Under the pieces are notes generated by a model. That model made no database searches and was not told the origin of the DNA. It was given only the letters and a program-made list of their open reading frames with translations. From the NCBI GenBank assembly GCA_006538405.1, contig BJKQ01000046.1, positions 1 to 44,819 of the forward strand: 44,819 nucleotides of DNA, read 5' to 3'. The position numbers and the translations under genes are program-made. The stretch comes from Hansfordia pulvinata. Taxonomy: Eukaryota; Ascomycota; Sordariomycetes; Xylariales. Shown here one piece after another: positions 1 through 26,550 of the stretch (position 1 is the stretch's first letter; every line of letters starts with the position of its first letter).

Positions 1-1606
1 CAGACGATTCCTGGACTTTTGCATCGAGCATTCTCCACAATGGACTGTAGGTTACAATAACTATGGTTATGATAATACCAGAATATCATTCCATGTAGAC
101 AGTACCTTTGATGGTATGCTTATACCTATGAGGATAGGTGCTGGTAGTTCCCTTACATATGCATTTTATATAGATATACCAGGGTCCTACAATATAGATG
201 CGATGACATTCTTAGACAAAACGGACAGATCTACATATACTAATATGTCACTAGCTACAGTTGTCAAGCATCATGGTATAGAGGATAAGATGGCTTTTGA
301 TACAAGTGATCTCTCTGATATCAAACTATTCTTCGAGTACAATGTACATGACTGCTATATAACCACACGACTTGCGATAGAGTCAGGCATCATAACAAAA
401 ATAGCATCATTGGCATGTTCTGCAGCTGTACCTGTGATAGATGCGGCAAGATTTGTCACAGGAACTTTCGCTGCTTGTGCTATAGCATCATACTGTCTAC
501 AAAAATCAGTTTCGATGGACTGGACAAGATGCAATACAGTAACAGAATACAGAGGCGCAGAAGTATTAAAGCCAGTGACAGGACTTCATGAAAATGTAGT
601 GTCATGTGACTTTTCTTCTATGTATCCCACGATCTTGGTAGCTGCCAATATATCCATTGAGAACTTCTATACTACGGAGACAAACATGAAAGAAGGAAGT
701 GTATGGATATCCAATACTGGATCTAATTTCGTAGTGGATGGTAGAAGAATATCATTCTCTAAAGAAGGTAACACAATAGTACCACCTGTAATGAAGTTCT
801 TTGTGTCAAAAAGGAAGGAGGTGAGAAAGCAAAATCCAGCATACGCTTCTGCACTTAAGATATGCGCAAATAGTATATACGGATCCCTGGGTGACAGGAA
901 CTCAAGGATATATAGCCCTATGTGCTCTGCTGCTGTAACTACAGGAGGCAGATGGTGTCTTGCTGTAGCAGAGAGTATATTGAGTATGTATGGATTCAAG
1001 GTCGTATATGGTGATACAGATTCTTGCTATATTAGAGCATCAGGCAAGTATGCTGATAGTGTTAGTAGTGTCCTGAGCATAATGAAGAATATATTCAAGT
1101 ACACACCATTTCCTGGTATGTCCATGGAACTAGAGAATACGTTTTCCAAGATAGCATTCATAGGCAAGAAGACATACTTTGGTGTCACTAAAGAAGGAAG
1201 GGTAATGTCTAAAGGTATGTCAAAGTCTAGAAAAGATAGGCTGGGTATATGCAGACTACTATCGTCATATGTCTCTGATGTAATCCTGTCACCATTACCT
1301 AGAGAGATAGCAATAGAAAAGATAGGAAATCTGATCTCTGCAACTATAGACTCTACAGTATCAATGGATCTGAATCTATCTCATGTATCGAAGTACGTCA
1401 AGAAAGGTGGCTCTAATCACTATGAGTATACACATTCAGATGGAAAGAGATACACAATGGAGAGCGAATCATATACAGGGAACGAGCATGTGGATTATTC
1501 TGTATCTCATGTATGCAATGCAATCCAAAAGGAAATGAAAAGCTTACTAGAGGTGTCATCTCTTGGTAATATATCTTATTGCATCAGTAGATCGTCATAC
1601 ATATAA
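1..1606 (+). CDS. Family B DNA polymerase, 3' part (cut by window start)
   Basis: This is the C-terminal part, from residue 174 on, of the polymerase described in full at 26568-28691; the window edge removes the start. It carries all polymerase motifs (DFSSMYP, KICANSIYG, YGDTDS, GKKTY) and exonuclease motifs II and III, and stops with TAA at 1604-1606, where the dyad of the next gene begins. Confidence 0.95.
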   Translation, partial: RRFLDFCIEHSPQWTVGYNNYGYDNTRISFHVDSTFDGMLIPMRIGAGSSLTYAFYIDIPGSYNIDAMTFLDKTDRSTYTNMSLATVVKHHGIEDKMAFDTSDLSDIKLFFEYNVHDCYITTRLAIESGIITKIASLACSAAVPVIDAARFVTGTFAACAIASYCLQKSVSMDWTRCNTVTEYRGAEVLKPVTGLHENVVSCDFSSMYPTILVAANISIENFYTTETNMKEGSVWISNTGSNFVVDGRRISFSKEGNTIVPPVMKFFVSKRKEVRKQNPAYASALKICANSIYGSLGDRNSRIYSPMCSAAVTTGGRWCLAVAESILSMYGFKVVYGDTDSCYIRASGKYADSVSSVLSIMKNIFKYTPFPGMSMELENTFSKIAFIGKKTYFGVTKEGRVMSKGMSKSRKDRLGICRLLSSYVSDVILSPLPREIAIEKIGNLISATIDSTVSMDLNLSHVSKYVKKGGSNHYEYTHSDGKRYTMESESYTGNEHVDYSVSHVCNAIQKEMKSLLEVSSLGNISYCISRSSYI

Positions 1607-1618
1607 CAGCGCTGCTGT
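1606..1618 (+). promoter_or_regulatory. Dyad ACAGC-GCT-GCTGT before 1641 gene
   Basis: Perfect 5-base arms with a 3-base spacer, extendable to 6 bp. It lies 22 bp before the ATG at 1641, overlaps the last base of the polymerase stop codon, and argues against any start further upstream. Confidence 0.7.
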
Positions 1619-1640
1619 TTCAGTCACAGTCAGAAGCAAT

Positions 1641-1988
1641 ATGCATTACCTCTATACCACTGTGTGCCCTGGTGCTCTGTCTCACTTATGTGAGACTCCT
1701 GCTGTACCGTTCATGTATATGCATGACAATTCTTGCAATGGCACTGCATGTTATGTATGGAGAACAGATAAAACCAGAAAGCAGCTAGCAGATGAAGGAA
1801 TAATGAAGCACGTTTTTGAACTACGCTACTGTAATACATGCTTCATGAGATACCATGATGCAGGTGTATTGCCACCGTTTCATAACTTTAGATTGCATTC
1901 TAATACACAGAATAGTTTTGCTATATTTGATGAAGACAGCAAGGTGATGATGCAGGGCAATGAAGTACCAGGACTCAAACAAGTATGA
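1641..1988 (+). CDS. Hypothetical Cys-rich protein, 115 aa
   Basis: I do not recognise this protein. The ATG at 1641 follows the dyad at 1606-1618 by 22 bp; an open frame extends upstream to 1563 but would place the dyad inside the coding region. It contains several cysteines, including a CNTC pair followed by MRYHDAGVL, which may bind zinc. A similar HDAG-M-L string follows a CADC pair in the 56-aa protein at 9770-9940, a weak hint of relatedness. It lies directly after the DNA polymerase and is followed by an ATTTTTAAAAT element. No signal peptide or membrane segment is apparent. Confidence 0.75.
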   Translation: MHYLYTTVCPGALSHLCETPAVPFMYMHDNSCNGTACYVWRTDKTRKQLADEGIMKHVFELRYCNTCFMRYHDAGVLPPFHNFRLHSNTQNSFAIFDEDSKVMMQGNEVPGLKQV

Positions 1989-1990
1989 GT

Positions 1991-2003
1991 GATTTTTAAA
2001 ATC
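1991..2003 (+). terminator. GATTTTTAAAATC 3'-end element
   Basis: A/T dyad three bases after the TGA at 1986-1988. It belongs to the recurring ATTTTAAAAT class that sits just past stop codons in this genome. The termination or polyadenylation role is inferred from position only. Confidence 0.4.
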
Positions 2004-2007: not shown

Positions 2008-2020
2008 ACGACGTAGTCGT
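2008..2020 (+). promoter_or_regulatory. Dyad ACGAC-GTA-GTCGT before 2046 gene
   Basis: Perfect 5-base arms and 3-base spacer, 25 bp before the ATG at 2046. Relative to the common GCAAC/GTTGC form, two positions changed in each arm and still pair. Confidence 0.7.
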
Positions 2021-2646: not shown

Positions 2647-2656
2647 ATTTTAAAAT
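2647..2656. terminator. ATTTTAAAAT between convergent genes
   Basis: Self-complementary element in the 30-bp gap between the stops at 2642 (+) and 2673 (-). Its symmetry could serve both strands. Function is inferred from recurrence and position. Confidence 0.45.
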
Positions 2657-2672: not shown

Positions 2673-3203
2673 TTAATTAGGAATACTAACTGCACATACT
2701 CTACCATAGCCAAGATCGCTTCTGTAGCTATTCTCATAGCTTCTAGAGAAAGGACATATGTAACTGGGGAATGAAGTATCATAAACTGGACCTACTCTAG
2801 TTACGTATATAATATCGCATATCAAGAAGTCACCACTAAAATATGTGAATTGTATATCCATCGAAGAACTGTTGAGAGAGACTAGCTTTGGTAAGAAAAG
2901 AGGATCGTCAATATGAGTATTATATACTCTAGAATTTAGGTCTATGATCATGTCCATACCTACATTGAAAGAAGATATAGATCGCATCCATACGTCCACC
3001 ACTCTAGACTTCATTATGGTAGATAGTCTACATGGAGGCAATAGTAGCTTGGTTACATAACCATTCTCTATGACAGTCTCTCCTGTAGCTAGTAGCATGC
3101 ATTCGTTTCCCTTCTGTCCGTCATGTTCTATTGTCGCATACTCTACGTTTTTGACTCCACGCACTATTTCCGTAATACGAGTAAATGTACTAGGCGATGG
3201 CAT
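2673..3203 (-). CDS. Hypothetical protein, 176 aa, paralogue of 9953-10432
   Basis: Function unknown, but it is clearly related to the 159-aa protein at 9953-10432. Both share a block of the form [YF]V-KL-LP-C, then K-SR-VDV--RSI-S-N, at matching positions. The ATG at 3203 gives an N-terminus that aligns with its paralogue; the upstream frame to 3227 begins with GTG and is not supported. The ATG overlaps the stop of the preceding gene as TAATG, and this is the only gene without a convincing dyad (a weak ATACT-GT-AGTAT lies at 3208-3219). It may therefore be expressed from the 3203-4681 transcript by reinitiation. Confidence 0.8.
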   Translation of the reverse strand: MPSPSTFTRITEIVRGVKNVEYATIEHDGQKGNECMLLATGETVIENGYVTKLLLPPCRLSTIMKSRVVDVWMRSISSFNVGMDMIIDLNSRVYNTHIDDPLFLPKLVSLNSSSMDIQFTYFSGDFLICDIIYVTRVGPVYDTSFPSYICPFSRSYENSYRSDLGYGRVCAVSIPN

Positions 3204-4681
3204 TATGATACTGTAGTATGAGGACACGGATTACTGCAGCATACACGAGCACAGGAACCCAGTTCTATGTACTTGTTTATGCACGATACAATATGATCAG
3301 AATTCGATGTCACTACAGTATCCTCGTTCATGTGTTGGTGTTCCATAGTAGCGTATGCTACGGAGATATCAAAGAATGTACTTACATAGTCCCCTTCATT
3401 AAGTCTGGCTATGTATCCTATACTCTTTATACATAGATCATCAGCCATGGCTCTAGTTCCTGGCATTATGCCACAGAATGCATTATTGTCTTCTTCCATG
3501 GAGTCACATACAGTACAAAATTCACATGTAACAGTGATCTGCTTGTCTTTGCATTGTATAGATATAGAGTTACTATTTTCAGTGTGGCGATATGATATTG
3601 ACATTACTGTACTGTCTAGTACAACGGATCTTGTGGATGCAGCAATACGCACCATACCATATACCTTTGTCATTTCAAGTACACTGTTTATGTACTCTGT
3701 GTTGCGTTTCACAGTACGCTGGTCATAGTATGTATTGCTCTTACTGTACACCTGAGCTCTTGCAATCGAAGTAGGATACTCTATGCTCAATCCTATATCT
3801 ATTTCTTCAAAGTACACAGCTTGTGTATGTAGTCTTTTGTCTTTCATACTGCTTGAACCTACATACTTGGAGCCAAGATCGCGTATATTTCGCACGCTAT
3901 GATTCAAGTCAAGGACTCTGTGGAGATGCATCTGTTCTGGTTGTAGTAACCCAGGGAAACGAATAGGAGTGGAATTCGGATCATTACAAGGCGGACTTTC
4001 AAGCCTAAATCCTCTAGATATAAAACGACGAATCCTTTCATCTTTCAAGTCGACAGGGTAGTCACGTAGGAAGTACATAGATCTGTGTAGTTTCGACAAC
4101 TCATGATTCAAATGGCATGCTGAATAACCAGATATATAGCTCTGGACACATCCAAAATCAAATTGAGAAATCAGATGAATTGGAGACTTACACCAATCAG
4201 AGCGTATCACATTTATTTTAGTGGAATTTGACACAGCACCGTATCCTGACCAACCATCAGATACAAATTCTTGCCTATAGAGTCTATCTTTCCATCTTTT
4301 AGTGTGCAATGTAATACCCTTATAAGTGAGCCATCTACAAAATACAATACAGTTAGCACCATCTCCAATATGAAAGAAATTCCAGCTAGATTTTCCATCG
4401 CATGTACCAGGAACGAAAAATTCAGCACACCTTGTACCAGCCAGGACCATACCACAGAGCATCATCATTTTCATCGTCTCTCTCCCGTCTCCTACTATAT
4501 TGTCCATATAGTTTTCTAGCATAGTGCCATGGTCAAGTAGACCCGACATGTCCTCTCCCGTTTCATACTTGATTTCTTCACAGTACTGCTCTGCAAGGCC
4601 CAATGTAGTATGGTTGAGAGTTTCCACAACCATCTCAGTAGGAAGCCGTTTGGCAAGATAGACAGGAGATACTGATTGCAT
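3203..4681 (-). CDS. Nucleotidyltransferase-fold-like protein, 492 aa
   Basis: The N-terminal half resembles uncharacterised nucleotidyltransferase-like proteins of fungi and large DNA viruses: GMVLAG (77-82), SSWNFF (98-103, where relatives tend to have D-W-D-F), KINVIR (155-160) and QSYISG (180-185). The acidic residues expected in the active site are Ser and Asn here, so catalysis is doubtful. The protein at 10959-11843 carries the same four blocks in the same order, with both Q-S pairs at residues 180-181. The Cys-rich C-terminal part shares faint patterns (CEFC; IVSC) with the 159-aa protein at 9953-10432. The start is the ATG at 4681, 55 bp from the shared dyad at 4737-4749. The fold assignment is tentative; the reading frame is not. 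Confidence 0.7.
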   Translation of the reverse strand: MQSVSPVYLAKRLPTEMVVETLNHTTLGLAEQYCEEIKYETGEDMSGLLDHGTMLENYMDNIVGDGRETMKMMMLCGMVLAGTRCAEFFVPGTCDGKSSWNFFHIGDGANCIVFCRWLTYKGITLHTKRWKDRLYRQEFVSDGWSGYGAVSNSTKINVIRSDWCKSPIHLISQFDFGCVQSYISGYSACHLNHELSKLHRSMYFLRDYPVDLKDERIRRFISRGFRLESPPCNDPNSTPIRFPGLLQPEQMHLHRVLDLNHSVRNIRDLGSKYVGSSSMKDKRLHTQAVYFEEIDIGLSIEYPTSIARAQVYSKSNTYYDQRTVKRNTEYINSVLEMTKVYGMVRIAASTRSVVLDSTVMSISYRHTENSNSISIQCKDKQITVTCEFCTVCDSMEEDNNAFCGIMPGTRAMADDLCIKSIGYIARLNEGDYVSTFFDISVAYATMEHQHMNEDTVVTSNSDHIVSCINKYIELGSCARVCCSNPCPHTTVS

Positions 4682-4736: not shown

Positions 4737-4749
4737 GCAACAGCGTTGC
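4737..4749. promoter_or_regulatory. Dyad GCAAC-AGC-GTTGC, divergent promoter
   Basis: Perfect copy of the commonest form, alone in the 89-bp gap between the minus-strand ATG at 4681 (55 bp away) and the plus-strand ATG at 4771 (21 bp away). Confidence 0.75.
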
Positions 4750-4770: not shown

Positions 4771-6546
4771 ATGTCTGAAGCATTCACGGTCAGGAGACTA
4801 GCGTACGATGGATCCGACATATCAGATACATGGAGGATAGTGGGAATAGGGCATTCACCTTTGAATGCAAATAATGTAGTATTCCAGAACCCATCTAATG
4901 TAGAGGAATACGAATCAGGATGCCAGACACACAATGATGAAACGTGTATGGGGCATATGTGCAAAACACCTCACGGATCTATGCTCCCAATACAATCCGT
5001 AGCTATTTCGACTCCCGTAATGAAGAATGATATATCTAAGTCTGCGTCAGCTGCATTTGCTGGACCGTCCAGATATCATTCTGATCTGTCTAGATCCATA
5101 CTTGCGGATTCACTGAAGACAAAGAGAGGAAGAATGAGACATGGGATTCTGAACTGCCATGTAGATGGAAGTCTGCGCATGGTGATTACCCCGCAAATAG
5201 GAGAACAGGAAAACGTAGTATACATCCCAGACTATCTCAAAGGCAAATGGAAGGTCGTGAGATACGATGACACAGAAGCCAGATACAAGGCCGTATATGT
5301 CAAGGAGGGTGACAATGCTATTGCAATTAGACCACCAGCTCTTTCCATAGAGTCTGTGCAGCCTGTAATAGTAGGATTCTGGTCCAGAACATGCATGGGT
5401 ATATCTCCTAGTATATTGAAGGCATTCAAAGGAGACTATGATGGAGATGAAATGCATCTTTATCCTGTGTATTCTAGTGGATCGATAGAAGAATGCCAAG
5501 ACTGGAATATCACTCCAAATAAATCGTTTGATATAGCACGCAAAATATATAAAGGTAGCGGTATACCATTCAAGGGATCTGATCCATATGACTTCATGCT
5601 CCATACTACATTGTCTTTCGAGGAGATATCCATCGGAACTGAACAGCCTCTAATGGCTGAACAAACGCGTACCAAAGCCGAGCATCTACGCACATTCAAA
5701 GAGAGATACGATGTAGCTTCAGTATCAGAGAAATTCCTAGATGAATCTATAAGAGGCATGGCAGATACAAATACTCAACAGAACTCACAGCCTATCATAG
5801 GTGACCGTTCGCGTATGGCAAAACTAGCTGCTACTAATGTAATACAGAGGGATGATGGAAGTATGTACATAGCTACATTCTCTGGAAAAGAAGAGATGGG
5901 TGTGTTCGAGCAAGATGGCCACGCTGGTAATTCGGCTGTCAGAGGTATATCAACCATATGCGCTGGTGTTCAACAGATAGCATTAAGTGCCCATCATGCC
6001 AAGGAAAAATCAGTAGAATCTCATGATATTGTAACAGATATGATAGATGGATTTGATCACACTGTAGTATTCATTGATTCTGCTGTTGCATATAGTACTA
6101 TAAGACGTACTCTGCAGGCCAAGCAAGTAGCTACTATCTCTGGTACGCATATGGTAATATGCAAACCTTCTCTTGTAAGGCATATCAATAGAAACTATAT
6201 TATAGGATCATTCAGTCCTGTAGTATTGACCATGGTAGAGCCAGCCAAACGATTCGAAGTATGCAAGTACTGTATCGAAAAGGTAATAAGGTACTATGGA
6301 TTCGAGATCTCACCAGCAGAATTGAATTCCATATCACTATTATTTTCATTCCGTGTAGACTTGTCTCATCGTCCCATTACAACTAGAGATGGACTTATGT
6401 CTCGAGGTCTCAGATGGACAGAGTCTATGATGTCCAATAGTTTTACTGCTGTGTCAAAGAAATTCAGAAGTGATGAGATTCCAATATGCCCTATTGATAC
6501 TGTGAGCTCGTGTCTCATGGCAGGTAATTTCCTTGAAGAATTGTAA
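4771..6546 (+). CDS. RNA polymerase largest-subunit (RPB1/beta')-like, 591 aa
   Basis: Catalytic large subunit of a DNA-dependent RNA polymerase. The Mg-binding signature is present as DYDGDEMH (222-229; family NADFDGD), with all three aspartates. Before it lie a clamp zinc-site remnant (Cys/His cluster 51-68, including CMGHMC) and a KTKRGRMRHGILN block (116-128) matching the conserved KGRFR region. After it come a bridge-helix-like segment GDRSRMAKLAATNVIQ (344-359) and a C-terminal DTVSSCLMAG (576-585) matching the end of the catalytic core. It is less than half the usual length of about 1,400 residues, so jaw, funnel and much of the clamp appear lost. The frame opens at a TTG (4681), but the dyad at 4737-4749 makes 4771 the start. 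It should pair with the RPB2-like protein at 22085-24454. Confidence 0.92.
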   Translation: MSEAFTVRRLAYDGSDISDTWRIVGIGHSPLNANNVVFQNPSNVEEYESGCQTHNDETCMGHMCKTPHGSMLPIQSVAISTPVMKNDISKSASAAFAGPSRYHSDLSRSILADSLKTKRGRMRHGILNCHVDGSLRMVITPQIGEQENVVYIPDYLKGKWKVVRYDDTEARYKAVYVKEGDNAIAIRPPALSIESVQPVIVGFWSRTCMGISPSILKAFKGDYDGDEMHLYPVYSSGSIEECQDWNITPNKSFDIARKIYKGSGIPFKGSDPYDFMLHTTLSFEEISIGTEQPLMAEQTRTKAEHLRTFKERYDVASVSEKFLDESIRGMADTNTQQNSQPIIGDRSRMAKLAATNVIQRDDGSMYIATFSGKEEMGVFEQDGHAGNSAVRGISTICAGVQQIALSAHHAKEKSVESHDIVTDMIDGFDHTVVFIDSAVAYSTIRRTLQAKQVATISGTHMVICKPSLVRHINRNYIIGSFSPVVLTMVEPAKRFEVCKYCIEKVIRYYGFEISPAELNSISLLFSFRVDLSHRPITTRDGLMSRGLRWTESMMSNSFTAVSKKFRSDEIPICPIDTVSSCLMAGNFLEEL

Positions 6547-6559: not shown

Positions 6560-6569
6560 ATTTTAAAAT
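6560..6569. terminator. ATTTTAAAAT between convergent genes
   Basis: Lies in the 30-bp gap between the RPB1-like stop (6546) and the minus-strand stop at 6577. Same element and placement as 2647-2656. Confidence 0.45.
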
Positions 6570-7333: not shown

Positions 7334-7346
7334 GTAACATTGTTAC
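7334..7346 (-). promoter_or_regulatory. Dyad GTAAC-ATT-GTTAC before 7317 gene
   Basis: Perfect arms with a changed second base in both (T in the left, A in the right). It is 16 bp upstream of the minus-strand ATG at 7317, in the 35-bp gap after the upstream gene. Confidence 0.7.
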
Positions 7347-8109: not shown

Positions 8110-8122
8110 GCAACAATGTTGC
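8110..8122. promoter_or_regulatory. Dyad GCAAC-AAT-GTTGC, divergent promoter
   Basis: Single dyad in the 67-bp gap between the ATG at 8081 (-, 28 bp) and the ATG at 8149 (+, 26 bp). Confidence 0.75.
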
Positions 8123-8605: not shown

Positions 8606-8618
8606 GCAACACCGTTGC
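8606..8618 (+). promoter_or_regulatory. Dyad GCAAC-ACC-GTTGC before 8652 gene
   Basis: Starts two bases after the NADAR stop. The stem extends to 7 bp (ATGCAAC/GTTGCAT), the longest here. It is 33 bp before the ATG at 8652. Confidence 0.72.
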
Positions 8619-8651: not shown

Positions 8652-9191
8652 ATGGGTAATTCTAGGCATACAAGACGTCCCAGTAGACAGCATGCTACAG
8701 TATATGACCTAATACACTGGAACATATCATCGCACTTTGATACGTCTAGCTGGGACGCTAGGGACAGGCCTCTGTTCTTAGCAGACAAAGTATATGATCT
8801 CTCATCTATAGGTAAGAGAATGGTAGATGTATGTGAAGAGGTATATGGTAGAGACTCAGTGATCTACGAAGTCGTAGGCGAAATATGGGTATCCTTCCTT
8901 TCTCTGTATAATGGTCTTGGATCTAGCGAAATATACAAAATTAACAATCCGCATGATACTACAGTGTTAGAGTTTATATCAGAGGGTATATGCCTCCATG
9001 ATACATTCCAGAATATACTTACGGATTCGTACAATGCATCTTCTTGCAATAGTAACTATACTAGCTCTATTTTTACTGTGATGTCGTATATTCTGTATAA
9101 CAATACGACCATGGAAAGTATTATAGAACTGTGCTCTGACATAATGAAATGGGATCGCATGAGACGTATTCTATATGGAAAGATGTGTTAG
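8652..9191 (+). CDS. Hypothetical MGN-start protein, 179 aa
   Basis: Unrecognised. It begins MGNSRHTRRPSRQ, a basic, Ser/Arg-rich N-terminus with Gly at position 2, like the start MGNRQSSVSRSGRHR of the gene at 14640-15404. Both could be N-myristoylated, though residue 6 here is His rather than the usual Ser/Thr. The rest is mostly hydrophobic and acidic, without clear membrane helices. The start at 8652 is set by the dyad at 8606-8618; the open frame back to 8601 includes the dyad. Confidence 0.78.
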   Translation: MGNSRHTRRPSRQHATVYDLIHWNISSHFDTSSWDARDRPLFLADKVYDLSSIGKRMVDVCEEVYGRDSVIYEVVGEIWVSFLSLYNGLGSSEIYKINNPHDTTVLEFISEGICLHDTFQNILTDSYNASSCNSNYTSSIFTVMSYILYNNTTMESIIELCSDIMKWDRMRRILYGKMC

Positions 9192-9203
9192 CAGCATGGC
9201 TGC
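9191..9203 (+). promoter_or_regulatory. Dyad GCAGC-ATG-GCTGC before 9231 gene
   Basis: Perfect arms of the GCAGC/GCTGC variant, overlapping the last base of the preceding stop, 27 bp before the ATG at 9231. The spacer ATG is not a start: it is followed by a different frame. Confidence 0.7.
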
Positions 9204-9705: not shown

Positions 9706-9715
9706 ATTTTAAAAC
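9706..9715 (+). terminator. ATTTTAAAAC 3'-end element
   Basis: Fourteen bases after the 9231 gene's stop and before the dyad of the next gene. Confidence 0.4.
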
Positions 9716-9740: not shown

Positions 9741-9753
9741 GCAACGTTGTTGC
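9741..9753 (+). promoter_or_regulatory. Dyad GCAAC-GTT-GTTGC before 9770 small gene
   Basis: Perfect common form, 16 bp before an ATG that opens a 56-codon frame. It is the main reason to believe in that gene. Confidence 0.72.
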
Positions 9754-9943: not shown

Positions 9944-9953
9944 ATTTTAAAAT
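9944..9953. terminator. ATTTTAAAAT between convergent genes
   Basis: Occupies most of the 12-bp gap between the stops at 9940 (+) and 9953 (-). Confidence 0.45.
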
Positions 9954-10454: not shown

Positions 10455-10467
10455 GCAACAACGTTGC
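10455..10467 (-). promoter_or_regulatory. Dyad GCAAC-AAC-GTTGC before 10432 gene
   Basis: Perfect common form, 22 bp upstream of the minus-strand ATG at 10432 and just past the RNase H stop. Confidence 0.73.
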
Positions 10468-10944: not shown

Positions 10945-10957
10945 ACAACTGTGTTGG
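10945..10957 (-). promoter_or_regulatory. Imperfect dyad ACAAC-TGT-GTTGG before RNase H
   Basis: One outer mismatch in the arms, 14 bp upstream of the RNase H ATG. A second inverted repeat, AGTTGT-ACTT-ACAACT (10935-10950), overlaps it and is perfect but has the half-sites in the opposite order. Confidence 0.5.
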
Positions 10958-11848: not shown

Positions 11849-11861
11849 GCAACAATGTTGC
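11849..11861. promoter_or_regulatory. Dyad GCAAC-AAT-GTTGC, divergent promoter
   Basis: Lies 5 bp from the minus ATG at 11843 and 16 bp from the plus ATG at 11878. An extra half-site (TTGCAAC, 11864-11870) follows on the plus side. Confidence 0.73.
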
Positions 11862-13308: not shown

Positions 13309-14733
13309 ATGGACATGCATCTTACAGAATCACAGTCGAAGGCATTTGACCTTGTTACCAAGACTGATAGGAATGTATTCATAACCGGGCAAGGTGGTAC
13401 GGGTAAATCTGAACTTCTGGGATCTATAGTCAAGCATATTCGTCATGTTTCCGGCCAATGTATAGCAGTAACCGCTTCTACTGGAGTGGCTGCTCTCAAC
13501 ATATCAGGTATGACATTCCATCGGTTCGTAGGAGCAGGAATAGAAGAGAATGATATAGATGAGATGGTACGCAGAGCATCCAGAGGAGCATCTCGTAAGT
13601 ATTGGAATGACACTACTACTCTCATAGTAGATGAAATCTCTATGATCTCTCCCAAATTCTTTTCAGCTGCATCTAGAGTCGGATCATTGATACGAAAGAA
13701 GGACTCCCCCTTTGGTGGTATGCGTGTGATTCTATTCGGTGACTTCCTTCAACTTCCTTACATATCTAAGAATAGACTCGATTCTAGTCAAGTGTACACA
13801 ACAGAAACATGGAAACAGCTTCAGGTAGTTTCTATATCATTACGTGATCAAGTAAGGCAACGAGACGGAATGTTTCAGGATATCCTGTCAGGATTGCGCT
13901 ATGGTATATGTACACCTATTGCAAGGGACTTCATCAAGTCACTAGAGCGCAAAATAGAATACGATGATGATATAGCCCCTGTGAAGTTATTTTCTAAGAA
14001 AGCTACAGTAGAGAATGTCAACAATCTGATGTTGGACTCTATTCCAGGAGATGCTATAGTATTTCCTAGTACAGATCAAGGTCCAGATGCTATCCTTAGA
14101 CAATGTCAATGTGTGCGATCTCTACGACTCAAAGTGGGAGCTCAGGTAATGCTACTAAAGAACCTAACATCTGAAGCAGTCAATGGATCTGTAGGGAAAA
14201 TAGCAGGATTTGACAATGATGCTACGATAGGATACAGAAATCCAATAGTGGAGTTCACAGATAGGAATGGGATCTCATTCAAACATGTGATCAAGAGGCA
14301 CAAATGGGAATCCTTGGATCCATATGGTAAGCCATTAGCTCACAGGATCCAATATCCGCTTGCATTGGCATGGGCACTGACAATACATAAATCACAAGGA
14401 CAGACTATAAAGCGCCTATATGTAGACTTGGAAGGAGTCTTTGAACTTGGTCAGCTCTATGTAGCTCTCAGTAGAGGTACTGACCCTAGTACTATACAGA
14501 TTGTGAATTTTGACCCTTCCTATGTGAGATCATCTGTATCGTGTGTCGAATTCCACCGCCAAATAGAGAACTCACCTTGGACAGAGATCGATGCCGCTAT
14601 AAGGGATGCAGCGGTGGCTGCAAGTGGTTCACTAACACAATGGGAAACAGACAGAGCTCCGTATCAAGATCCGGGCGACATCGTCCAAGACATGGCCAAT
14701 CTGCTGATAGGTCCAGCCGAAGCCATAGACTGA
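13309..14733 (+). CDS. Pif1/RecD2-like SF1B DNA helicase, 474 aa
   Basis: 5'-to-3' DNA helicase of superfamily 1. Motifs in order: GQGGTGKS (27-34, Walker A), TASTGVAAL (Ia), VDEISM (Walker B), GDFLQLP (III), then the C-terminal WALTIHKSQGQT and YVALSRG that bind DNA and ATP. Likely roles are fork progression, Okazaki-type processing or recombination. The frame opens at a TTG (13282) lying inside the dyad; the ATG at 13309 is the real start, with the helicase fold beginning a few residues in. The last 94 bp overlap the start of the 14640 gene in another frame, so the C-terminal tail (Ala/Asp-rich, after the last motif) is dual-coding. Confidence 0.94.
   Translation: MDMHLTESQSKAFDLVTKTDRNVFITGQGGTGKSELLGSIVKHIRHVSGQCIAVTASTGVAALNISGMTFHRFVGAGIEENDIDEMVRRASRGASRKYWNDTTTLIVDEISMISPKFFSAASRVGSLIRKKDSPFGGMRVILFGDFLQLPYISKNRLDSSQVYTTETWKQLQVVSISLRDQVRQRDGMFQDILSGLRYGICTPIARDFIKSLERKIEYDDDIAPVKLFSKKATVENVNNLMLDSIPGDAIVFPSTDQGPDAILRQCQCVRSLRLKVGAQVMLLKNLTSEAVNGSVGKIAGFDNDATIGYRNPIVEFTDRNGISFKHVIKRHKWESLDPYGKPLAHRIQYPLALAWALTIHKSQGQTIKRLYVDLEGVFELGQLYVALSRGTDPSTIQIVNFDPSYVRSSVSCVEFHRQIENSPWTEIDAAIRDAAVAASGSLTQWETDRAPYQDPGDIVQDMANLLIGPAEAID
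14608..14621 (+). promoter_or_regulatory. Dyad GCAGC-GGTG-GCTGC inside the Pif1 gene
   Basis: Perfect 5-base arms but a 4-base spacer. It is embedded in coding sequence, 18 bp before the ATG at 14640, so it must serve both as helicase codons and as promoter. Confidence 0.6.
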
Positions 14734-15415: not shown

Positions 15416-15434
15416 GCAACGCTCACGCAGTTGC
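15416..15434 (+). promoter_or_regulatory. Long-loop dyad GCAAC-N9-GTTGC before 15470 gene
   Basis: Canonical arms separated by nine bases (GCTCACGCA) instead of three, 35 bp before the ATG at 15470. The only site with this spacing, so it may be a different promoter class. Confidence 0.6.
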
Positions 15435-16242: not shown

Positions 16243-16252
16243 ATTTTAAAAT
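16243..16252 (+). terminator. ATTTTAAAAT 3'-end element
   Basis: Follows the 15470 gene's stop by 35 bp and directly precedes the next gene's imperfect dyad. Confidence 0.42.
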
Positions 16253-16253: not shown

Positions 16254-16266
16254 CCACCACAGCTGG
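16254..16266 (+). promoter_or_regulatory. Imperfect dyad CCACC-ACA-GCTGG before 16280 gene
   Basis: One arm mismatch and divergent sequence; accepted mainly for its position, 13 bp before the ATG at 16280. Confidence 0.35.
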
Positions 16267-17744: not shown

Positions 17745-17757
17745 GCAGCCGAGCTGC
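17745..17757. promoter_or_regulatory. Dyad GCAGC-CGA-GCTGC, divergent promoter
   Basis: Perfect arms of the GCAGC variant, 10 bp from the minus ATG at 17734 and 16 bp from the plus ATG at 17774. It fills a 39-bp gap. Confidence 0.73.
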
Positions 17758-18755: not shown

Positions 18756-18765
18756 ATTTTAAAAT
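18756..18765. terminator. ATTTTAAAAT between convergent genes
   Basis: Extends to a 14-bp perfect palindrome (18754-18767) in the 21-bp gap between the stops at 18754 (+) and 18776 (-). Confidence 0.48.
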
Positions 18766-20331: not shown

Positions 20332-20344
20332 ACAACACTGTTGT
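20332..20344 (-). promoter_or_regulatory. Dyad ACAAC-ACT-GTTGT before UDG-like gene
   Basis: Perfect arms with the outer pair A:T, 17 bp upstream of the minus ATG at 20314, between two tandem minus-strand genes. Confidence 0.7.
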
Positions 20345-21274: not shown

Positions 21275-21287
21275 GCAACAATGTTGC
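21275..21287 (-). promoter_or_regulatory. Dyad GCAAC-AAT-GTTGC before 21256 gene
   Basis: Perfect common form, 18 bp upstream of the minus ATG at 21256 and two bases from the stop of the upstream gene. Confidence 0.73.
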
Positions 21288-22046: not shown

Positions 22047-22059
22047 GCAACGTTGTTGC
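22047..22059. promoter_or_regulatory. Dyad GCAAC-GTT-GTTGC, divergent promoter
   Basis: Single dyad in the 60-bp gap, 22 bp from the minus ATG at 22024 and 25 bp from the plus ATG at 22085 of the RPB2-like gene. Confidence 0.75.
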
Positions 22060-22084: not shown

Positions 22085-24454
22085 ATGGATTCTTCAACTA
22101 TATTCGTGCTTCCTGAGGACTCTCAGACGGGAAATACATATCTCGCCACGCAATATGTACTTAGATCTTGCAATAGAGACACCAAGATATCGAAGTCCAG
22201 ATCGCGAGAACAGAGCAAGTGTCCTGAGTTCGATGGAATACGTTCACCTGGTAAAGTTGCACCTCTTATTACCTTTGATAATGGTATAGGGCACTGGGTA
22301 GATGGTAAGACTAGTACAATAGACCAAGCAGAGGTCAGTTCTATATCTCGTCTAGTAGAGTGCATCAGAGCATTTGTGCACAATAGTTCCAAGAGTGGAT
22401 ACGTATGGGACTTAACTAAGACAGTCCAGTATTCTATGAACAAAAATGATACTACAGAGTCTATGTCTCGTGTTCTAGACACACAGCTATCAAGGCCATA
22501 TAATCCCATATCATGTCATTCTGTGCTCGCGTACATAGAATCTGAATCCAGGAGAGGAAAGGGCAGATCCATGTTTATGGCACCAAGTCAGTCTACAATA
22601 GTAACTGGAATACATGGTGGCCTACACAACAATACTTCACTAGAGATGGGATTCGTGGAAGCAGAGGGAACCAGAGACATTGAAAAGCGAACATATGACA
22701 AATCACTGGTTGGATTCGTATGTGCAGGTCATACAGCGCACTCAGAAGACGCAGGCAAAAGTAGGCGAATATGCTCGTACACAAGAGTACGTGTACTACA
22801 TAGCTCTATACTGGATTGTATATATGACTCTGAAGTCTCCAGTGATGAGATCTGCGATTGGGTGGTATACTGCATGGGCATTACTACTTATGCTTCTTTT
22901 AGCACTGTCAAGAATATAGTATCCATCTTGTCATCGGAGTCAGTTAGGTACTACAGGAATCAATTTGTCAACTACAAGGACACTACAATGCTTGCTCCAG
23001 CTACATACATGGTGTATGAGAAAGAGAAGGTGCTCTTCATCTCAGTATCATCCGGAACTATACTACGCTCTGTACCAGGAGGTGCTATGGTAGATAGTCA
23101 TATGCTCAATCACCAAGAGCCTAACAGTATTGTACGACACTGTGAGCTACCTGCATACGGTGCAGGCTCCATAATGTACAAGTACTCTGCATTCTTTATG
23201 ATGACACCGTTTGTAGAGCACGACAGACCTCCAAGGACACTGTTCGCGTCTGGACAAACAACTCAAGGAATGTTCTTTCCATGGTCCCCTGCTACTGCAA
23301 GACTCGCGCCTCTCCATGCATCTAGGCCAATAGTAGCTACACATTTCGTCCGTCAAATAGAACAAGACCAAGAGGATGATCCCGAGGCTATGTGGGATGT
23401 ATTTGCAGGAGAAGACTTAAGTGTATGCTACATGAACATGGGAGATAACTATGATGATTCTCTGGTAGTATCAAGTGCATTTGCTGACAGGGGCGGATTC
23501 GCCTCTATAGCACTATGTACATACAGAGTCCCAGAGACAGAGCTCATGCCACAAGTTGGAGAGAAGCTATGTGGCAAGAAATACCATTGGTGGAAAGTGG
23601 ATTGCACTAGTACGTGCTCATGTGCAATGAAAGACGGGGACAAATTCACATCCACCTCAGGTCGGATCCCATCTGGAAGGGTACATCAGATAATCAGAAC
23701 AGAAGATGGCGCAGTGTCAATTAAGGTAATTAGCTTCTCTCAGATTTTAACAGGAGACAAGGTCTCTACCATGCATGGCCAGAAGGGTGTAGTGAAGATA
23801 GTGTCCCAGGAAGACCTCCCTATCATAATCATGAAGGATGGTAGTACATTCATAGCAGATGCGTATATCGCAGTAGGATCCATCGTTTCAAGGCAAACTA
23901 ATGGACAAATATATGAATCTGCGCATGGCCTAAGAGGAGCCCGAGACGGCAACAGACAGGATGTAGACGAAATACAGGATACTTCTTCTGAATCATGCAG
24001 CTATCTCATTAATCCATTGAGTGGGTTACCCATAATGAGACAGTTTCCTTCTGGAAAAGTAGACTGTGTTAAAGCCACTATAGGATTCACGAGAATGATA
24101 CACCAAACACAGACCACAAGGGAACGTCATCACCTTACTCATCGATCTGAGGGAAAAGGCAGTACCGGGACTCGGTCAGGCAGAGCAGAAGGAGGAGGCG
24201 TCTCGGCTGCAGAAATGGATTTCCATGCCATGTACGCAAGTGGTCTGTCTAATTGTAGCGATGAGATATATAAGCGAGGAAACATGTGTATAGTCAAATA
24301 CTGCACTATATGCAAGGCCCTGTTTCCTGTTCACGATTGCGGGACAGATGGAAACTTTGTAGATGTCCAGGTCTCATGGGATATGGTAACTCTCGATATG
24401 ATAACTGCATGCGTCAATAAGAGCATCAATAGATACGATATTGAGCACGTATGA
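22085..24454 (+). CDS. RNA polymerase second-largest-subunit (RPB2/beta)-like, 789 aa
   Basis: Partner of the RPB1-like subunit in a multisubunit RNA polymerase. Hallmarks in order: GDNYDDSLVVS (from 453; family GYNQEDS), GEKLCGKK, GDKVSTMHGQKG (557-568, the nucleotide-contacting signature), a PDxxxNPxxxPSRMT-like block (ADAYIAVGSIVSRQT), then EGGGVSAAEMDFHAMYASG, matching the GGQRFGEMEVWAL region, and a terminal Cys/His site (CTIC...HDC). It is about two-thirds of the usual 1,170-1,220 residues, with the N-terminal lobes most reduced. It starts at the ATG at 22085, 25 bp from the dyad, and is convergent with the capping enzyme gene (2-bp gap). Confidence 0.94.
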   Translation: MDSSTIFVLPEDSQTGNTYLATQYVLRSCNRDTKISKSRSREQSKCPEFDGIRSPGKVAPLITFDNGIGHWVDGKTSTIDQAEVSSISRLVECIRAFVHNSSKSGYVWDLTKTVQYSMNKNDTTESMSRVLDTQLSRPYNPISCHSVLAYIESESRRGKGRSMFMAPSQSTIVTGIHGGLHNNTSLEMGFVEAEGTRDIEKRTYDKSLVGFVCAGHTAHSEDAGKSRRICSYTRVRVLHSSILDCIYDSEVSSDEICDWVVYCMGITTYASFSTVKNIVSILSSESVRYYRNQFVNYKDTTMLAPATYMVYEKEKVLFISVSSGTILRSVPGGAMVDSHMLNHQEPNSIVRHCELPAYGAGSIMYKYSAFFMMTPFVEHDRPPRTLFASGQTTQGMFFPWSPATARLAPLHASRPIVATHFVRQIEQDQEDDPEAMWDVFAGEDLSVCYMNMGDNYDDSLVVSSAFADRGGFASIALCTYRVPETELMPQVGEKLCGKKYHWWKVDCTSTCSCAMKDGDKFTSTSGRIPSGRVHQIIRTEDGAVSIKVISFSQILTGDKVSTMHGQKGVVKIVSQEDLPIIIMKDGSTFIADAYIAVGSIVSRQTNGQIYESAHGLRGARDGNRQDVDEIQDTSSESCSYLINPLSGLPIMRQFPSGKVDCVKATIGFTRMIHQTQTTRERHHLTHRSEGKGSTGTRSGRAEGGGVSAAEMDFHAMYASGLSNCSDEIYKRGNMCIVKYCTICKALFPVHDCGTDGNFVDVQVSWDMVTLDMITACVNKSINRYDIEHV

Positions 24455-24456
24455 TA

Positions 24457-26520
24457 TCATATTAAAATCCTTACACTACTACAGGCTATCTTAGCAGATT
24501 CATCCATATTGTATTCTGAAAGGGGACACATATCTGTAGCTTCCATGGAGGATACTGACAATGGTATGTCCTGATCAGTAACAGCAGGCTCTACAAAAGC
24601 ATCGTCGGAACCCCATCTAACTAAGGCTTGAGATATTGACATTCTTGTCATAGACACATTGCCAGTATTTATAATAGAATCTCCTACATCGACATCCTCA
24701 TAGGAATAGAGCGAACCTATGAATGGTACATCACAGTCCTTTAGTCTGTTTATTTCTTGTAGTACGAATTGTGCACTAAAGCAAGATATAGCGCACTTCA
24801 GAACACCAGATAAATTCCTCATTATGGCATCATCAGAGACCAGATCAATGAGACTACAATTCAATATGTGGAATTTCCTTGTACCTCTTTTCATAGACGT
24901 TATGACAGGTATAATAGATCTTGCATCCTTGCTATATCCTCTGCAACCGACACGTTTAGATAGTCTTTTGCACTTGGTTTCATCTGGCTCCAATAATACG
25001 AAACTACATCCTGGTAGTCGAGAGAATGCTTCAGACGACTGACCAGAACCAGATCCTATGTCTAAGATTATATTCTTTCCAGGATTCATTAAAGCTGCCC
25101 TAGAATAAAGTGCGAATCTGAGATTGTTGGACCATCTCCATATAGAGTTTCTTATAGAGTTTGTACCAGACGGCACGAAACATGATTCTATTATAGAGGT
25201 CACTGCAGCTGTGTCATTAGCTGATTTCTTATCAGTTCGAATAAAACAATCTACTATATTTACTTTTCCGTCTAGGATTCTGAATCGTACCTCTACTATA
25301 GAACCTATCTCATACATGGCACTGTCTGTGATTTTCGCAAGACTGAGATCGTCCTTGGTTCTAAGAATGCCATCTTCTGCTACGATTAGCTCCATAGACT
25401 TAACATCCTTTATTTTCTTCATATCAGTACCATCTTTCGACAGTGCGACTATACCATCGCAAGGATAATCGAGCGAGTCCATATATAATACAACATCGCT
25501 AATGGTATCGAAGAATGTCCTGGAATGTATAGATTGCACGAACACAAACCTGTCTCTCAGTCTGTCCATTGTATCGGCTATCCAGCATAGATTCCTATCA
25601 TGTGGAGACATAATACCAGGCTCACATATCAGTACATCTATGCATATGGCATTGAAGCCTATCATGCACTCTGTATCTATTGCCGGACCTGGCTTGGGAA
25701 TGGCAGTATCTAGAAGAGTTTCATCTACATAGAATCCTACTATAGAGTATCCAGATTGACGCCTACAGTAATACCATATGCATCCATACAATATGACCAT
25801 AATACGCTCTCCGTCAGGCTTAGAACTGAAACTATGTTCATAGTCCTTTGCAGTTGATGCGTCGTATGCTCTGGCACTAAGATTAGATATAGAACCTAGT
25901 GTCATGCTATTTATATGTTCCGAAAGTGCATCGGGGCACATTCCCTCTGTATACAATTCGTCTATAGAATCACAAAGAGAATTTTCAGAGCCTTGTAACA
26001 TGGATGTCATGGCTATCGTTTTATCTGAGACTAATTGGTACAATGTACCGTCTGATGAAATATAAGCCACTTGCACTATGGGATTAGTTCCATTGTATTG
26101 GCATGATCCTATTGACATTGTATCTATATGAACATTCAAGCCTATCTTTCTACTAGAAGTGCTCTTGATACACATTCCAGAATAGGGACCTGTTGTATAG
26201 TATTTGAATAGAGATCCAGTCTCATCAAGCACATTGTAGTAGTGCAATAATGTCTTTTTGGCATCATGCGGGATACCATGAGACGATGTGACTCTTAGAA
26301 TGTCTATATCATACAACAGTGTTACATCTACTATAGGAGTGTATTTTCTTGTCTTAGGTCTTCTTTTCAGATAGAAGTGTGGCTCATTGCGTTCAGAAAG
26401 AAACTTGGTCGGATCTAGAGGGCATAGGGGACATTTGAATACAACTGTTTGGGGCTCGTCTGCAGCCCTAGACTGGAATTCTAGCCGCAGTAGCTGAGAT
26501 TTGCAACTGGGACACTCCAT
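24457..26520 (-). CDS. mRNA capping enzyme (guanylyltransferase-methyltransferase), 687 aa
   Basis: Caps the 5' end of transcripts. A zinc ribbon (C3, C6, C30, C33) is followed by an unassigned region where an RNA triphosphatase would sit. Then comes the guanylyltransferase: KPDG with the nucleotide-linking Lys at 234, IDTECMIG (motif III), CDGIVAL (motif IV), and an OB-fold end around VEVRFRILDGK. A cap methyltransferase domain starts at about 480, with SAM-binding LDIGSGSGQ (486-494). The domain order resembles poxvirus D1 and ASFV-type enzymes. The N-terminal zinc ribbon is unusual and might dock on the polymerase. The ATG at 26520 is 17 bp from the dyad; the frame to 26541 starts with TTG inside it. 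Confidence 0.92.
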   Translation of the reverse strand: MECPSCKSQLLRLEFQSRAADEPQTVVFKCPLCPLDPTKFLSERNEPHFYLKRRPKTRKYTPIVDVTLLYDIDILRVTSSHGIPHDAKKTLLHYYNVLDETGSLFKYYTTGPYSGMCIKSTSSRKIGLNVHIDTMSIGSCQYNGTNPIVQVAYISSDGTLYQLVSDKTIAMTSMLQGSENSLCDSIDELYTEGMCPDALSEHINSMTLGSISNLSARAYDASTAKDYEHSFSSKPDGERIMVILYGCIWYYCRRQSGYSIVGFYVDETLLDTAIPKPGPAIDTECMIGFNAICIDVLICEPGIMSPHDRNLCWIADTMDRLRDRFVFVQSIHSRTFFDTISDVVLYMDSLDYPCDGIVALSKDGTDMKKIKDVKSMELIVAEDGILRTKDDLSLAKITDSAMYEIGSIVEVRFRILDGKVNIVDCFIRTDKKSANDTAAVTSIIESCFVPSGTNSIRNSIWRWSNNLRFALYSRAALMNPGKNIILDIGSGSGQSSEAFSRLPGCSFVLLEPDETKCKRLSKRVGCRGYSKDARSIIPVITSMKRGTRKFHILNCSLIDLVSDDAIMRNLSGVLKCAISCFSAQFVLQEINRLKDCDVPFIGSLYSYEDVDVGDSIINTGNVSMTRMSISQALVRWGSDDAFVEPAVTDQDIPLSVSSMEATDMCPLSEYNMDESAKIACSSVRILI

Positions 26521-26537
26521 GATGTATGTTTTTGTTT

Positions 26538-26550
26538 GCAACCATGTTGC
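26538..26550. promoter_or_regulatory. Dyad GCAAC-CAT-GTTGC, divergent promoter
   Basis: Exactly centred: 17 bp to the capping enzyme ATG at 26520 and 17 bp to the DNA polymerase ATG at 26568. Confidence 0.77.

What the first reader, a model, noticed from the sequence alone, without database searches (positions are those of the whole stretch)
1606..26550. One 13-bp dyad marks the start of 26 of 27 genes
RCARC-N3-GYTGY, most often GCAAC-N3-GTTGC, lies 5-55 bp upstream of nearly every ATG. The exact common form appears nine times in the unit (4737, 8110, 8606, 9741, 10455, 11849, 21275, 22047, 26538), all at gene starts; at equal base frequencies a fully specified 10-base pattern would be expected about 0.03 times in 27 kb. 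A single universal upstream element plus a self-encoded polymerase parallels the conserved upstream sequence of yeast cytoplasmic plasmids, but this sequence is different and palindromic. I know of no described element with this promoter.
Basis: partly seen in the sequence, partly recalled or inferred. Interest (0 to 1): 0.95.

Follow-up and report, generated by a model that had tools for sequence, protein, structure and literature searches.

The report
Palindrome promoter of circular fungal element
A 27-kb, apparently circular DNA element found in a fungal genome assembly, which encodes its own gene-reading enzyme, marks the start of most of its genes with one short palindrome followed at a fixed distance by the letters AC, apparently a private gene-start signal that may work by folding into a hairpin.

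Summary
The dyads are real. GCAAC-N3-GTTGC occurs nine times in the 27,085-bp unit, all at gene starts; shuffles of the whole window give 0.02. RCARC-N3-GYTGY as written serves 19 of 27 genes, not 26; with variant stems or loops, accepted after looking, 26 of 27 have a candidate. The exception, g3, overlaps the previous gene's stop (TAATG). Dyad-AC spacing is tight, dyad-ATG spacing is not, so this looks like a promoter plus initiator. Many gene ends carry TTTTAAAA or TTAAAA. Relatives keep the scheme: over-extended N-termini of three homologue sets can encode the dyad in 14 of 26 cases (N3 or N4 spacer; about 0.1 expected), and one relative's DNA (L012) has a different dyad plus AC at four of seven genes. 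Dyad variants change on both sides together, which favours a paired hairpin, but a dimer site stays about as likely. The element encodes split multisubunit-type RNA polymerase, a probable capping enzyme and a PolB not of the protein-primed type. No transcript data exist.

The parts
1606..1618 (.). dyad ACAGC-GCT-GCTGT, promoter of g1 (1641-1988 +); AC at +8
2008..2020 (.). variant dyad ACGAC-GTA-GTCGT, candidate promoter of g2 (2046-2642 +); AC at +9; left-out matrix score -1.7
4737..4749 (.). dyad GCAAC-AGC-GTTGC shared by g4 (3203-4681 -) and g5/rpo1 (4771-6546 +); AC at +8 on both sides
7334..7346 (.). variant dyad GTAAC-ATT-GTTAC, promoter of g6 (6577-7317 -); AC at +8
8110..8122 (.). dyad shared by g7 (7353-8081 -) and g8/NADAR (8149-8604 +); AC at +8 on both sides
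8606..8618 (.). dyad, promoter of g9 (8652-9191 +); AC at +6 and +10, not +8
9191..9203 (.). dyad GCAGC-ATG-GCTGC, promoter of g10 (9231-9692 +); AC at +8
9741..9753 (.). dyad, promoter of g11 (9770-9940 +, 56 aa); AC at +8
10455..10467 (.). dyad, promoter of g12 (9953-10432 -); AC at +8
10945..10957 (.). imperfect dyad ACAAC-TGT-GTTGG, promoter of g13/RNase H (10481-10930 -); AC at +8
11849..11861 (.). dyad shared by g14 (10959-11843 -) and g15/primase-helicase-like (11878-13251 +); AC at +8 on the g15 side only
13273..13285 (.). variant dyad TCAAC-ATA-GTTGA, promoter of g16/PIF1 helicase (13309-14733 +); AC at +8
14608..14621 (.). 4-nt-spacer dyad GCAGC-GGTG-GCTGC, candidate promoter of g17 (14640-15404 +); AC at +10
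15416..15434 (.). GCAAC-N9-GTTGC, candidate promoter of g18 (15470-16207 +); AC at +8 from the GTTGC
16254..16266 (.). degenerate dyad CCACC-ACA-GCTGG, candidate promoter of g19 (16280-16858 +); AC at +8
17745..17757 (.). dyad GCAGC-CGA-GCTGC shared by g20 (16844-17734 -) and g21 (17774-18754 +); AC at +8 on the g21 side only
20332..20344 (.). dyad ACAAC-ACT-GTTGT, promoter of g22 (18776-20314 -); AC at +8
21275..21287 (.). dyad, promoter of g23 (20351-21256 -); AC at +8
22047..22059 (.). dyad shared by g24 (21290-22024 -; AC at +9) and g25/rpo2 (22085-24454 +; AC at +10)
26538..26550 (.). dyad shared by g26/capping enzyme (24457-26520 -; AC at +9) and g27/PolB (26568-28691 +; AC at +8)
3201..3205 (-). 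TAATG stop-start overlap of g4 and g3, the only gene without a dyad candidate
1994..2001 (.). TTTTAAAA at the 3' end of g1
2648..2655 (.). TTTTAAAA between convergent g2 and g3
6561..6568 (.). TTTTAAAA between convergent g5 and g6
9707..9714 (.). TTTTAAAA at the 3' end of g10
9945..9952 (.). TTTTAAAA between convergent g11 and g12
16244..16251 (.). TTTTAAAA 37 nt past the stop of g18
18757..18764 (.). TTTTAAAA between convergent g21 and g22
4771..6546 (+). rpo1: Rpb1/beta'-like RNA polymerase subunit with an invariant GDxDGDE motif
22085..24454 (+). rpo2: Rpb2/beta-like RNA polymerase subunit
24457..26520 (-). probable capping enzyme: TFIIS/RPA12-like Zn ribbon, KPDGER (guanylyltransferase-like), DIGSGSGQS (methyltransferase-like)
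   Evidence: motif meanings recalled
26568..28691 (+). family-B DNA polymerase of the cellular/archaeal-like type (runs into the window's second copy)

Best explanation
The dyad plus the AC about 8 nt past its edge is the bipartite core promoter of an autonomous, apparently circular DNA element of a fungus, read by the element's own two-large-subunit RNA polymerase. The dyad positions the polymerase. The AC is the initiator and sets the direction: a dyad with AC on both sides drives two divergent genes, one with AC on one side drives one gene. Transcripts would start about 8-10 nt past the dyad, so the dyad would not be in its own gene's mRNA. They would be capped by the element's capping enzyme and end near TTTTAAAA or TTAAAA. 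Shown by sequence: the dyads, the AC phasing and its one-sidedness, the 3' motif, the enzyme families, and recurrence of a dyad-plus-AC form in relatives. Inferred: that AC is the start site, that the element's own polymerase reads the dyad, that TTTTAAAA ends transcripts, and a cytoplasmic location. Within this explanation, recognition of the dyad as a base-paired hairpin or cruciform is about as likely as recognition by a dimeric protein; the covariation of the stems leans to pairing.
For: Enrichment at starts: 19 of 27 strict against 0.8 expected; 19 of 50 perfect 5-3-5 palindromes fall in 1,592 bp of start regions (p 2e-11; 16 of the 19 are the dyads listed here). Phased AC: 16 of 23 at exactly +8 (p 6e-15), 0 of 11 on the away side of one-directional dyads. 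AC offset sd 0.7 nt (21 of 23 rows that have an AC at +6 to +11), dyad-ATG gap sd 9.4 nt. In a scan blind to genes the class 'spacer 3, AC at 8' has 24 members, 15 of them at the starts listed here; the other 97 classes have 1-13. No dyad at six convergent junctions. Relatives: the dyad can be encoded in over-extended N-termini in 10 of 26 (N3) plus 4 of 26 (N4), against 0.02 and 0.10 expected; AC possible at +8 to +10 in 14 of 14 (5.5 expected), at +8 in 5 of 14 (1.5 expected). L012 (proteins 24-32% identical): all four sites of the class '5-2-5 palindrome, AC at +7' are the starts of rpo2, PIF1, capping enzyme and rpo1, two of them being the two sides of one shared dyad. Polymerase and capping enzyme. 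For pairing: 9 two-sided changes, 0 one-sided, 1 unpaired cell of 70; 0 of 500 shuffles reach the covariation score.
Against: No RNA data. Seven of 23 rows lack AC at +8, and g14 and g20 have none near; the start codon used for g14 lies only 5 nt past the dyad, upstream of the expected start site. g3 has no dyad. Five genes (g2, g6, g17, g18, g19) fit only with altered stems, spacer or half-site; left-out matrix scores are poor for g2 (-1.7) and g16 (5.2), and sites that are not listed promoters (11567 at 18.1, 26313 at 13.5, 9801 at 13.0) score higher. One strict dyad (11567) lies inside a gene. Start codons were chosen partly because they follow dyads. The N-terminal test shows that a protein is compatible with the dyad, not the DNA; its rows are related to one another and some homologues of different genes may come from one element; the N4 form was noticed by eye before the spacer scan; the everted control pattern also fits 1 of 26 (P0084). 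One pairing measure, further pair types, is not above its shuffles (5 against 5.3). No sequence-specific factor was identified.
Confidence: 0.83

Rival explanations
1. The dyad is an operator-like double-stranded site for a homodimeric, element-encoded initiation factor; pairing within a strand plays no part. (This is a sub-form of the promoter reading, so its odds lie within that reading's 0.83.)
For: Perfect palindromes with fixed spacing are typical of dimer sites (recalled). A symmetric site explains divergent use. In the unit the exact half-sites pair almost only at spacer 3 (9 at spacer 3, 1 at spacer 9, 0 at the other spacers from 0 to 12). Predicted stems are weak.
Against: Variants change on both halves together: 9 two-sided, 0 one-sided; among the 13 strict sites at starts the chance of such matching is 4.5e-5. 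Spacers of 4 are compatible with relatives' proteins, 2 in L012, and 4 and 9 stand before g17 and g18. In L012 the rpo1 stem is GCGGT/ACCGC while its neighbours have GCAGC/GCTGC.
Confidence: 0.42
2. The dyad acts as an RNA stem-loop in the 5' leader (translation, stability or processing of longer transcripts).
For: Pairing is preserved; stems are weak but possible (-1.0 to -3.8 kcal/mol with DNA parameters, 14 dyads).
Against: AC is phased to the dyad, not to the ATG. In six rows an ATG lies in the first 10 nt past the dyad; in five of them it is upstream of the start codon used, in g14 it is that codon. Divergent pairs share one dyad.
Confidence: 0.08
3. The dyad is a terminator hairpin of the preceding gene, as RNA stem-loops are in yeast VLEs (PMC6211774).
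For: In one-directional pairs the dyad follows the upstream stop codon, sometimes overlapping it; stem-loops shape 3' ends in pGKL (passages read).
Against: Six dyads lie between divergent genes where no gene ends; none of six convergent junctions has one. A different motif, TTTTAAAA/TTAAAA, marks many ends.
Confidence: 0.04
4. The dyads are replication, packaging or recombination signals, or selfish repeats, that happen to lie between genes.
For: Compact element with few non-coding places (coding lengths sum to about 96% of the unit).
Against: Absent from convergent gaps; directional AC on the gene side only.
Confidence: 0.03

Closest known systems
Yeast cytoplasmic linear plasmids / virus-like elements (pGKL type), UCS ATNTGA plus initiator
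   Same: Self-encoded multisubunit-type RNA polymerase and capping enzyme; one upstream element, usually 20-40 nt before the start codon, plus an initiator region (PMC6211774, passages read).
   Different: Here the promoter is palindromic and unrelated to ATNTGA. The unit is repeated head to tail, 38-44% GC, PolB is not of the protein-primed family, and the RNA polymerase is two separate large proteins instead of one beta/beta' fusion plus a small subunit.
Coliphage N4 virion RNA polymerase hairpin promoters
   Same: Short stem with a 3-base loop, centred at -11 from the start (here the dyad centre is 14 nt before the AC); stem bases that are not conserved may change if pairing is kept (PMC4496689, passages read).
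   Different: N4 vRNAP is a T7-like enzyme of a bacterial virus; here a multisubunit-type enzyme in a fungal assembly. Hairpin extrusion is shown for N4 and only inferred here.
Nucleocytoplasmic large DNA viruses (poxvirus, ASFV)
   Same: Own RNA polymerase and capping enzyme; rpo2 matches vaccinia and ASFV subunits among many others.
   Different: Reduced polymerase (591 and 789 aa), small circular-looking genome, no AAAATTGA early motif (0 of 27, 0.0 expected, so this says little).
Jumbo-phage non-virion RNA polymerase (AR9/PhiKZ)
   Same: Best PDB sequence match of the rpo1 profile is 7s01/7s00 beta' (2e-14), which I take from recall to be AR9 nvRNAP; a reduced, split multisubunit enzyme.
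   Different: The match covers 136 profile positions round the active site and is no evidence of close kinship; the fold search ranks Pol II chains first, with low TM-scores (about 0.2). AR9 and PhiKZ papers were seen only in a search listing.

Membership tests
Yeast cytoplasmic linear plasmids (pGKL type) | Linear DNA with terminal inverted repeats | tested here: not met
   Unit of 27,085 bp repeated head to tail with no mismatch over 15.8 kb; self-comparison shows no inverted repeat other than the fold-back at 42,890-44,819, a copy of 13,943-15,872. Topology not proven experimentally.
Yeast cytoplasmic linear plasmids (pGKL type) | Protein-primed PolB (DNA_pol_B_2) | tested here: not met
   PF00136 3.4e-39; PF03175 under its cut-off (16.3 against 25.8 bits); best PDB matches are archaeal PolB, then Pol alpha among others. 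That pGKL PolB is protein-primed is recalled.
Yeast cytoplasmic linear plasmids (pGKL type) | beta/beta' fusion RNA polymerase plus small subunit | tested here: not met
   Two separate genes of 591 and 789 aa; a small subunit was not searched for.
Yeast cytoplasmic linear plasmids (pGKL type) | UCS ATNTGA before each ORF | tested here: not met
   3 of 27 starts, 3.5 expected.
Yeast cytoplasmic linear plasmids (pGKL type) | Own capping enzyme | tested here: met
   Invariant K, D, G and R of KPDGER and of the DxGxGxGQ stretch in 25 aligned members; catalytic meaning recalled; triphosphatase part and activity not tested.
Yeast cytoplasmic linear plasmids (pGKL type) | Cytoplasmic location | not testable with these tools
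   Inferred only from own polymerase and capping enzyme.
N4 hairpin promoter | Short stem, 3-nt loop at a fixed distance from the start, stem sequence partly free if paired | tested here: inconclusive
   Sequence form met; start sites and hairpin not mapped.
N4 hairpin promoter | T7-like RNA polymerase | tested here: not met
   The polymerase found is Rpb1/Rpb2-like.
N4 hairpin promoter | Supercoil-driven extrusion needed for activity | not testable with these tools
   Needs supercoiled-template assays.
NCLDV | Many-subunit RNA polymerase | tested here: inconclusive
   Pfam scans of 26 of the 27 genes (g11 was not scanned; one antisense ORF was) found only the two large subunits and the Zn ribbon; small subunits could be missed.
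Homodimer operator | Half-sites vary independently at fixed spacing | tested here: not met
   Two-sided changes only; spacing varies among relatives. Selection of sites and relatedness limit the test.

The most novel reading that the evidence does not exclude
A family of circular, self-transcribing DNA elements of filamentous fungi uses a promoter whose recognised feature is an extruded DNA hairpin (a short paired stem, loop 2-4 nt, occasionally longer), not a fixed base sequence, followed at fixed distance by an AC initiator. It would be a hairpin-directed promoter for a multisubunit-type RNA polymerase in a eukaryotic cell, readable in both directions from one cruciform.
Probability: 0.42. 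Interest if true: 0.92.

Novelty: new variant of a known kind. Interest (0 to 1): 0.82.

Why it matters
It gives gene-start and gene-end punctuation for a class of fungal elements with their own RNA polymerase that I did not find described, so start sites, directionality and termination can be tested at once. If pairing is what counts, it extends hairpin promoters, known from a T7-like phage enzyme, to multisubunit-type RNA polymerase and to eukaryotic cells. The dyad-plus-AC form also gives a signature for finding such elements in fungal assemblies and metagenomes, and its absence from known promoters suggests an orthogonal expression system.

Tried and rejected
Searches that led nowhere: IMG/VR viral contigs with rpo2, PolB and the three alignments gave no relative; plasmid and phage collections none for rpo2; GTDB genomes with the rpo2 alignment none. 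With the rpo1 alignment 3 of 67 matched stretches encode a relative; two (L013, L014) match only about 100 residues round the active site and were not used; L012 was used. PolB was not found in the assembly of L012 (which warns that an empty answer shows nothing). Host rRNA: four busy answers for RF01960, then RF00002 gave no match, so the host is known only as fungal (113 Fungal_trans matches).

Considered and rejected: terminator role, RNA leader hairpin, yeast UCS, NCLDV early motif, TATA box (4 of 27 against 1.6 expected, the four being two divergent pairs). I first took ORF starts from the longest frame; six (g5, g6, g8, g9, g23, g27) begin upstream of the dyad and were moved to an ATG after it, which agrees with the family start in rpo1; for the other five no family check was made, and g9 has an earlier in-frame ATG directly after the dyad. 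Left out of the alignments: rpo2 hits P0006 (similar to P0005), P0024 and P0034 (partial); rpo1 hits P0065 and P0071 (partial). The N-terminal test thus used 97 relatives (31+42+24), 26 of them with an extension of 6 aa or more. Of the 26, 14 fit N3 or N4 and one more (P0057) fits N5; P0084 also fits spacer 8; the other 11 fit neither. A first run on rpo1 and rpo2 alone gave 8 of 20.

Full report
WHAT THE WINDOW IS. The window is contig C46 of a 46.8-Mb, 63-contig assembly with 113 matches to the fungal transcription-factor domain PF04082, which rings in none of 14 control genomes, so I take the assembly to be fungal. The contig holds a 27,085-bp unit; positions 27,086-42,893 repeat 1-15,808 without a mismatch, and the last 1,930 bases are the reverse complement of 13,943-15,872. 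I read this as a circular molecule (or head-to-tail concatemer) that the assembler ran round 1.6 times, ending in a fold-back artefact. I count 27 genes. Those with family matches: a family-B DNA polymerase of cellular/archaeal-like type, a PIF1 helicase and RNase H, a NADAR protein, a primase-helicase-like protein (phage DNA primase profile 3e-10), an Rpb2/beta-like protein (fold match to RNA polymerase chains with TM about 0.45), an Rpb1/beta'-like protein with an invariant GDxDGDE motif (fold match weak, TM about 0.2) and a protein with a TFIIS/RPA12-like zinc ribbon, an invariant KxDGxR motif and a methyltransferase-like motif, which I take to be the mRNA capping enzyme (motif meanings recalled).

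THE OBSERVATION. RCARC-N3-GYTGY has 14 sites in the unit, 13 at gene starts serving 19 of 27 genes; the fourteenth, 11567, is the only asymmetric one and lies inside g14. With CARC-N3-GYTG the count is 21 of 27 against 1.0 expected. Five further starts have variants found by looking, so 26 of 27 holds only under a relaxed rule made after the fact; by a matrix with the site left out g2 scores -1.7 and g16 5.2, and g17 has nothing above -3.3, while 11567, 26313 and 9801, which are not listed promoters, score 13-18. The one gene without a candidate, g3, starts inside the stop codon of g4 (TAATG), an arrangement that in some fungal RNA viruses allows coupled translation (recalled). A count free of the motif: the unit has 50 perfect 5-3-5 palindromes, 19 of them (16 of the dyads and 3 others) in the 1,592 bp upstream of starts (p 2e-11).

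THE MISSED HALF. Aligning 23 gene-dyad pairs in the direction of the gene shows a second element: A at +8 (18 of 23) and C at +9 (18 of 23) past the dyad's edge. The dinucleotide AC is at exactly +8 in 16 of 23 (6.1% expected per place, p 6e-15) and at +8 to +10 in 21 of 23; g14 and g20 have none. On the away side of the 11 one-directional dyads it is at +8 in 0 of 11. In the six divergent pairs it lies at +8 on both sides in two (g4/g5, g7/g8); elsewhere one side or both is shifted (g24, g25, g26) or lacks it (g14, g20). A scan that ignores genes gives 24 sites for 'spacer 3, AC at 8', 15 of them at the starts listed here, and 1-13 for each of 97 other classes. The AC keeps its distance to the dyad (mean 8.1, sd 0.7, n=21) whereas the ATG does not (mean 21, sd 9.4, n=23). 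An initiator at a fixed distance from an upstream element is how a transcription promoter looks; a translation signal would keep its distance to the ATG.

GENE ENDS. TTTTAAAA occurs seven times in the unit (first-order Markov mean 0.3, maximum 2 in 100 runs), all seven past a stop codon, four of them in the six convergent gaps. TTAAAA in the sense direction lies at 17 of 27 gene ends, in the antisense direction at 11 of 27 (the octamer reads the same both ways), about 0.5 expected for either. No dyad lies at any convergent gap.

RELATIVES. Protein searches gave 34 homologues of rpo2, 44 of rpo1 and 24 of the capping enzyme, nearly all on contigs of 2-57 kb. The few with an organism name are fungi (Hirsutella rhossiliensis, Golovinomyces magnicellulatus, Blumeria graminis; the first and last on contigs of 8 and 20 Mb, so pieces may be integrated) and one oak record that I take for fungal contamination. 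I used a detour: predicted proteins that begin too early carry the translated leader. Of 97 aligned relatives 26 have an N-terminal extension of at least 6 aa; 10 of 26 can encode GCAAC-N3-GTTGC (0.02 expected from internal windows of the same proteins), 4 of 26 the N4 form (0.10 expected), 1 the N5 form; the other spacers from 0 to 9 fit 0 or 1 of 26. The everted control fits 1 of 26 at spacer 3 and 0 at spacer 4. All 14 N3/N4 cases allow AC at +8 to +10 (5.5 expected), 5 of 14 at +8 (1.5 expected). This is compatibility, not DNA, and the rows are related to one another. Real DNA came from one contig filed under a Streptomyces genome (L012, 10,116 bp, 50.5% GC, which I take for a contaminant). 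It encodes rpo2, capping enzyme, PIF1 and rpo1 at 24-32% identity. Instead a 5-2-5 palindrome with AC at +7 has exactly four sites on the contig, and they are the starts of those four genes: GCAGC-TA-GCTGC (rpo2), GCAGC-GT-GCTGC shared by the divergent PIF1 and capping genes, and GCGGT-GT-ACCGC (rpo1). The other three ORFs of the contig have no such site. The chance that all four fall in the start regions of the seven ORFs is about 2e-7, a figure that counts the shared dyad twice and does not allow for the 98 classes from which I could have chosen. TTTTAAAA also stands after two of its genes (0.14 expected).

HAIRPIN OR DIMER SITE. The 17 aligned dyads (14 distinct) have 98.6% standard pairs; four of five pairs have changes on both sides, none a change on one side only; none of 500 shuffles reaches the covariation score, 3 of 500 reach the number of two-sided pairs, and the number of further pair types is ordinary. 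Spacers of 2 (L012), 4 (compatible in relatives; g17) and 9 (g18) also suit a hairpin. Against it: the stems are short and weak (-1.0 to -3.8 kcal/mol), and in the unit the spacer is nearly always 3. In coliphage N4 the promoter hairpin has a 3-base loop, is centred at -11, and non-conserved stem bases may vary if pairing is kept (PMC4496689, passages read). I give the hairpin form about 0.42 and the dimer form the same, both within the promoter reading.

WHAT IT IS NOT. The nearest functional parallel, the yeast VLE system, was read in passages of PMC6211774: UCS ATNTGA, an initiator, a beta/beta' fusion polymerase, stem-loop terminators. Here ATNTGA is not enriched, the polymerase is two proteins, PolB is of another family and the DNA does not look linear. 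So it works like that system but is not a member of that family.

LIMITS. No transcript, binding or topology data. Some start codons were set with the dyad in mind. Kinship between dyads in one genome is unknown, so the shuffle test is not a strict probability.

Noticed in passing
window 1994, 2648, 6561, 9707, 9945, 16244, 18757; L012 1943, 4438: TTTTAAAA stands past stop codons (7 of 7 in the unit), most likely a transcript-end signal; also after two genes of the relative L012.
   Followed up: partly
window 42890-44819: Inverted copy of 13943-15872 at the end of the contig: probably a fold-back artefact of sequencing or assembly.
   Followed up: partly
window 3201-3205 (minus strand): TAATG stop-start overlap of g4 and g3, a possible case of coupled translation.
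   Followed up: no
P0065 (Hirsutella rhossiliensis), P0034 (Blumeria graminis), P0071 (Golovinomyces magnicellulatus): Homologues of rpo1/rpo2 in named fungal genomes, two on contigs of 8-20 Mb, suggest integrated fragments of such elements in chromosomes.
   Followed up: no
L012 (NZ_BMQF01000065.1): A 10-kb contig filed under Streptomyces fumigatiscleroticus encodes a relative of the element at 50.5% GC; probably contamination.
   Followed up: partly
window 8149-8604: A NADAR-domain protein (6.8e-26) in the element; its role there is unexplained.
   Followed up: no
window 17774-18754: g21 has a weak match (7e-5) to a phage tail tape-measure profile, perhaps only through coiled-coil content.
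   Followed up: no
window 22047-22059 and 4737-4749 flanks: Two of the divergent promoters also carry TATA[AT]A sequences within 70 bp (g4, g5, g24, g25).
   Followed up: no
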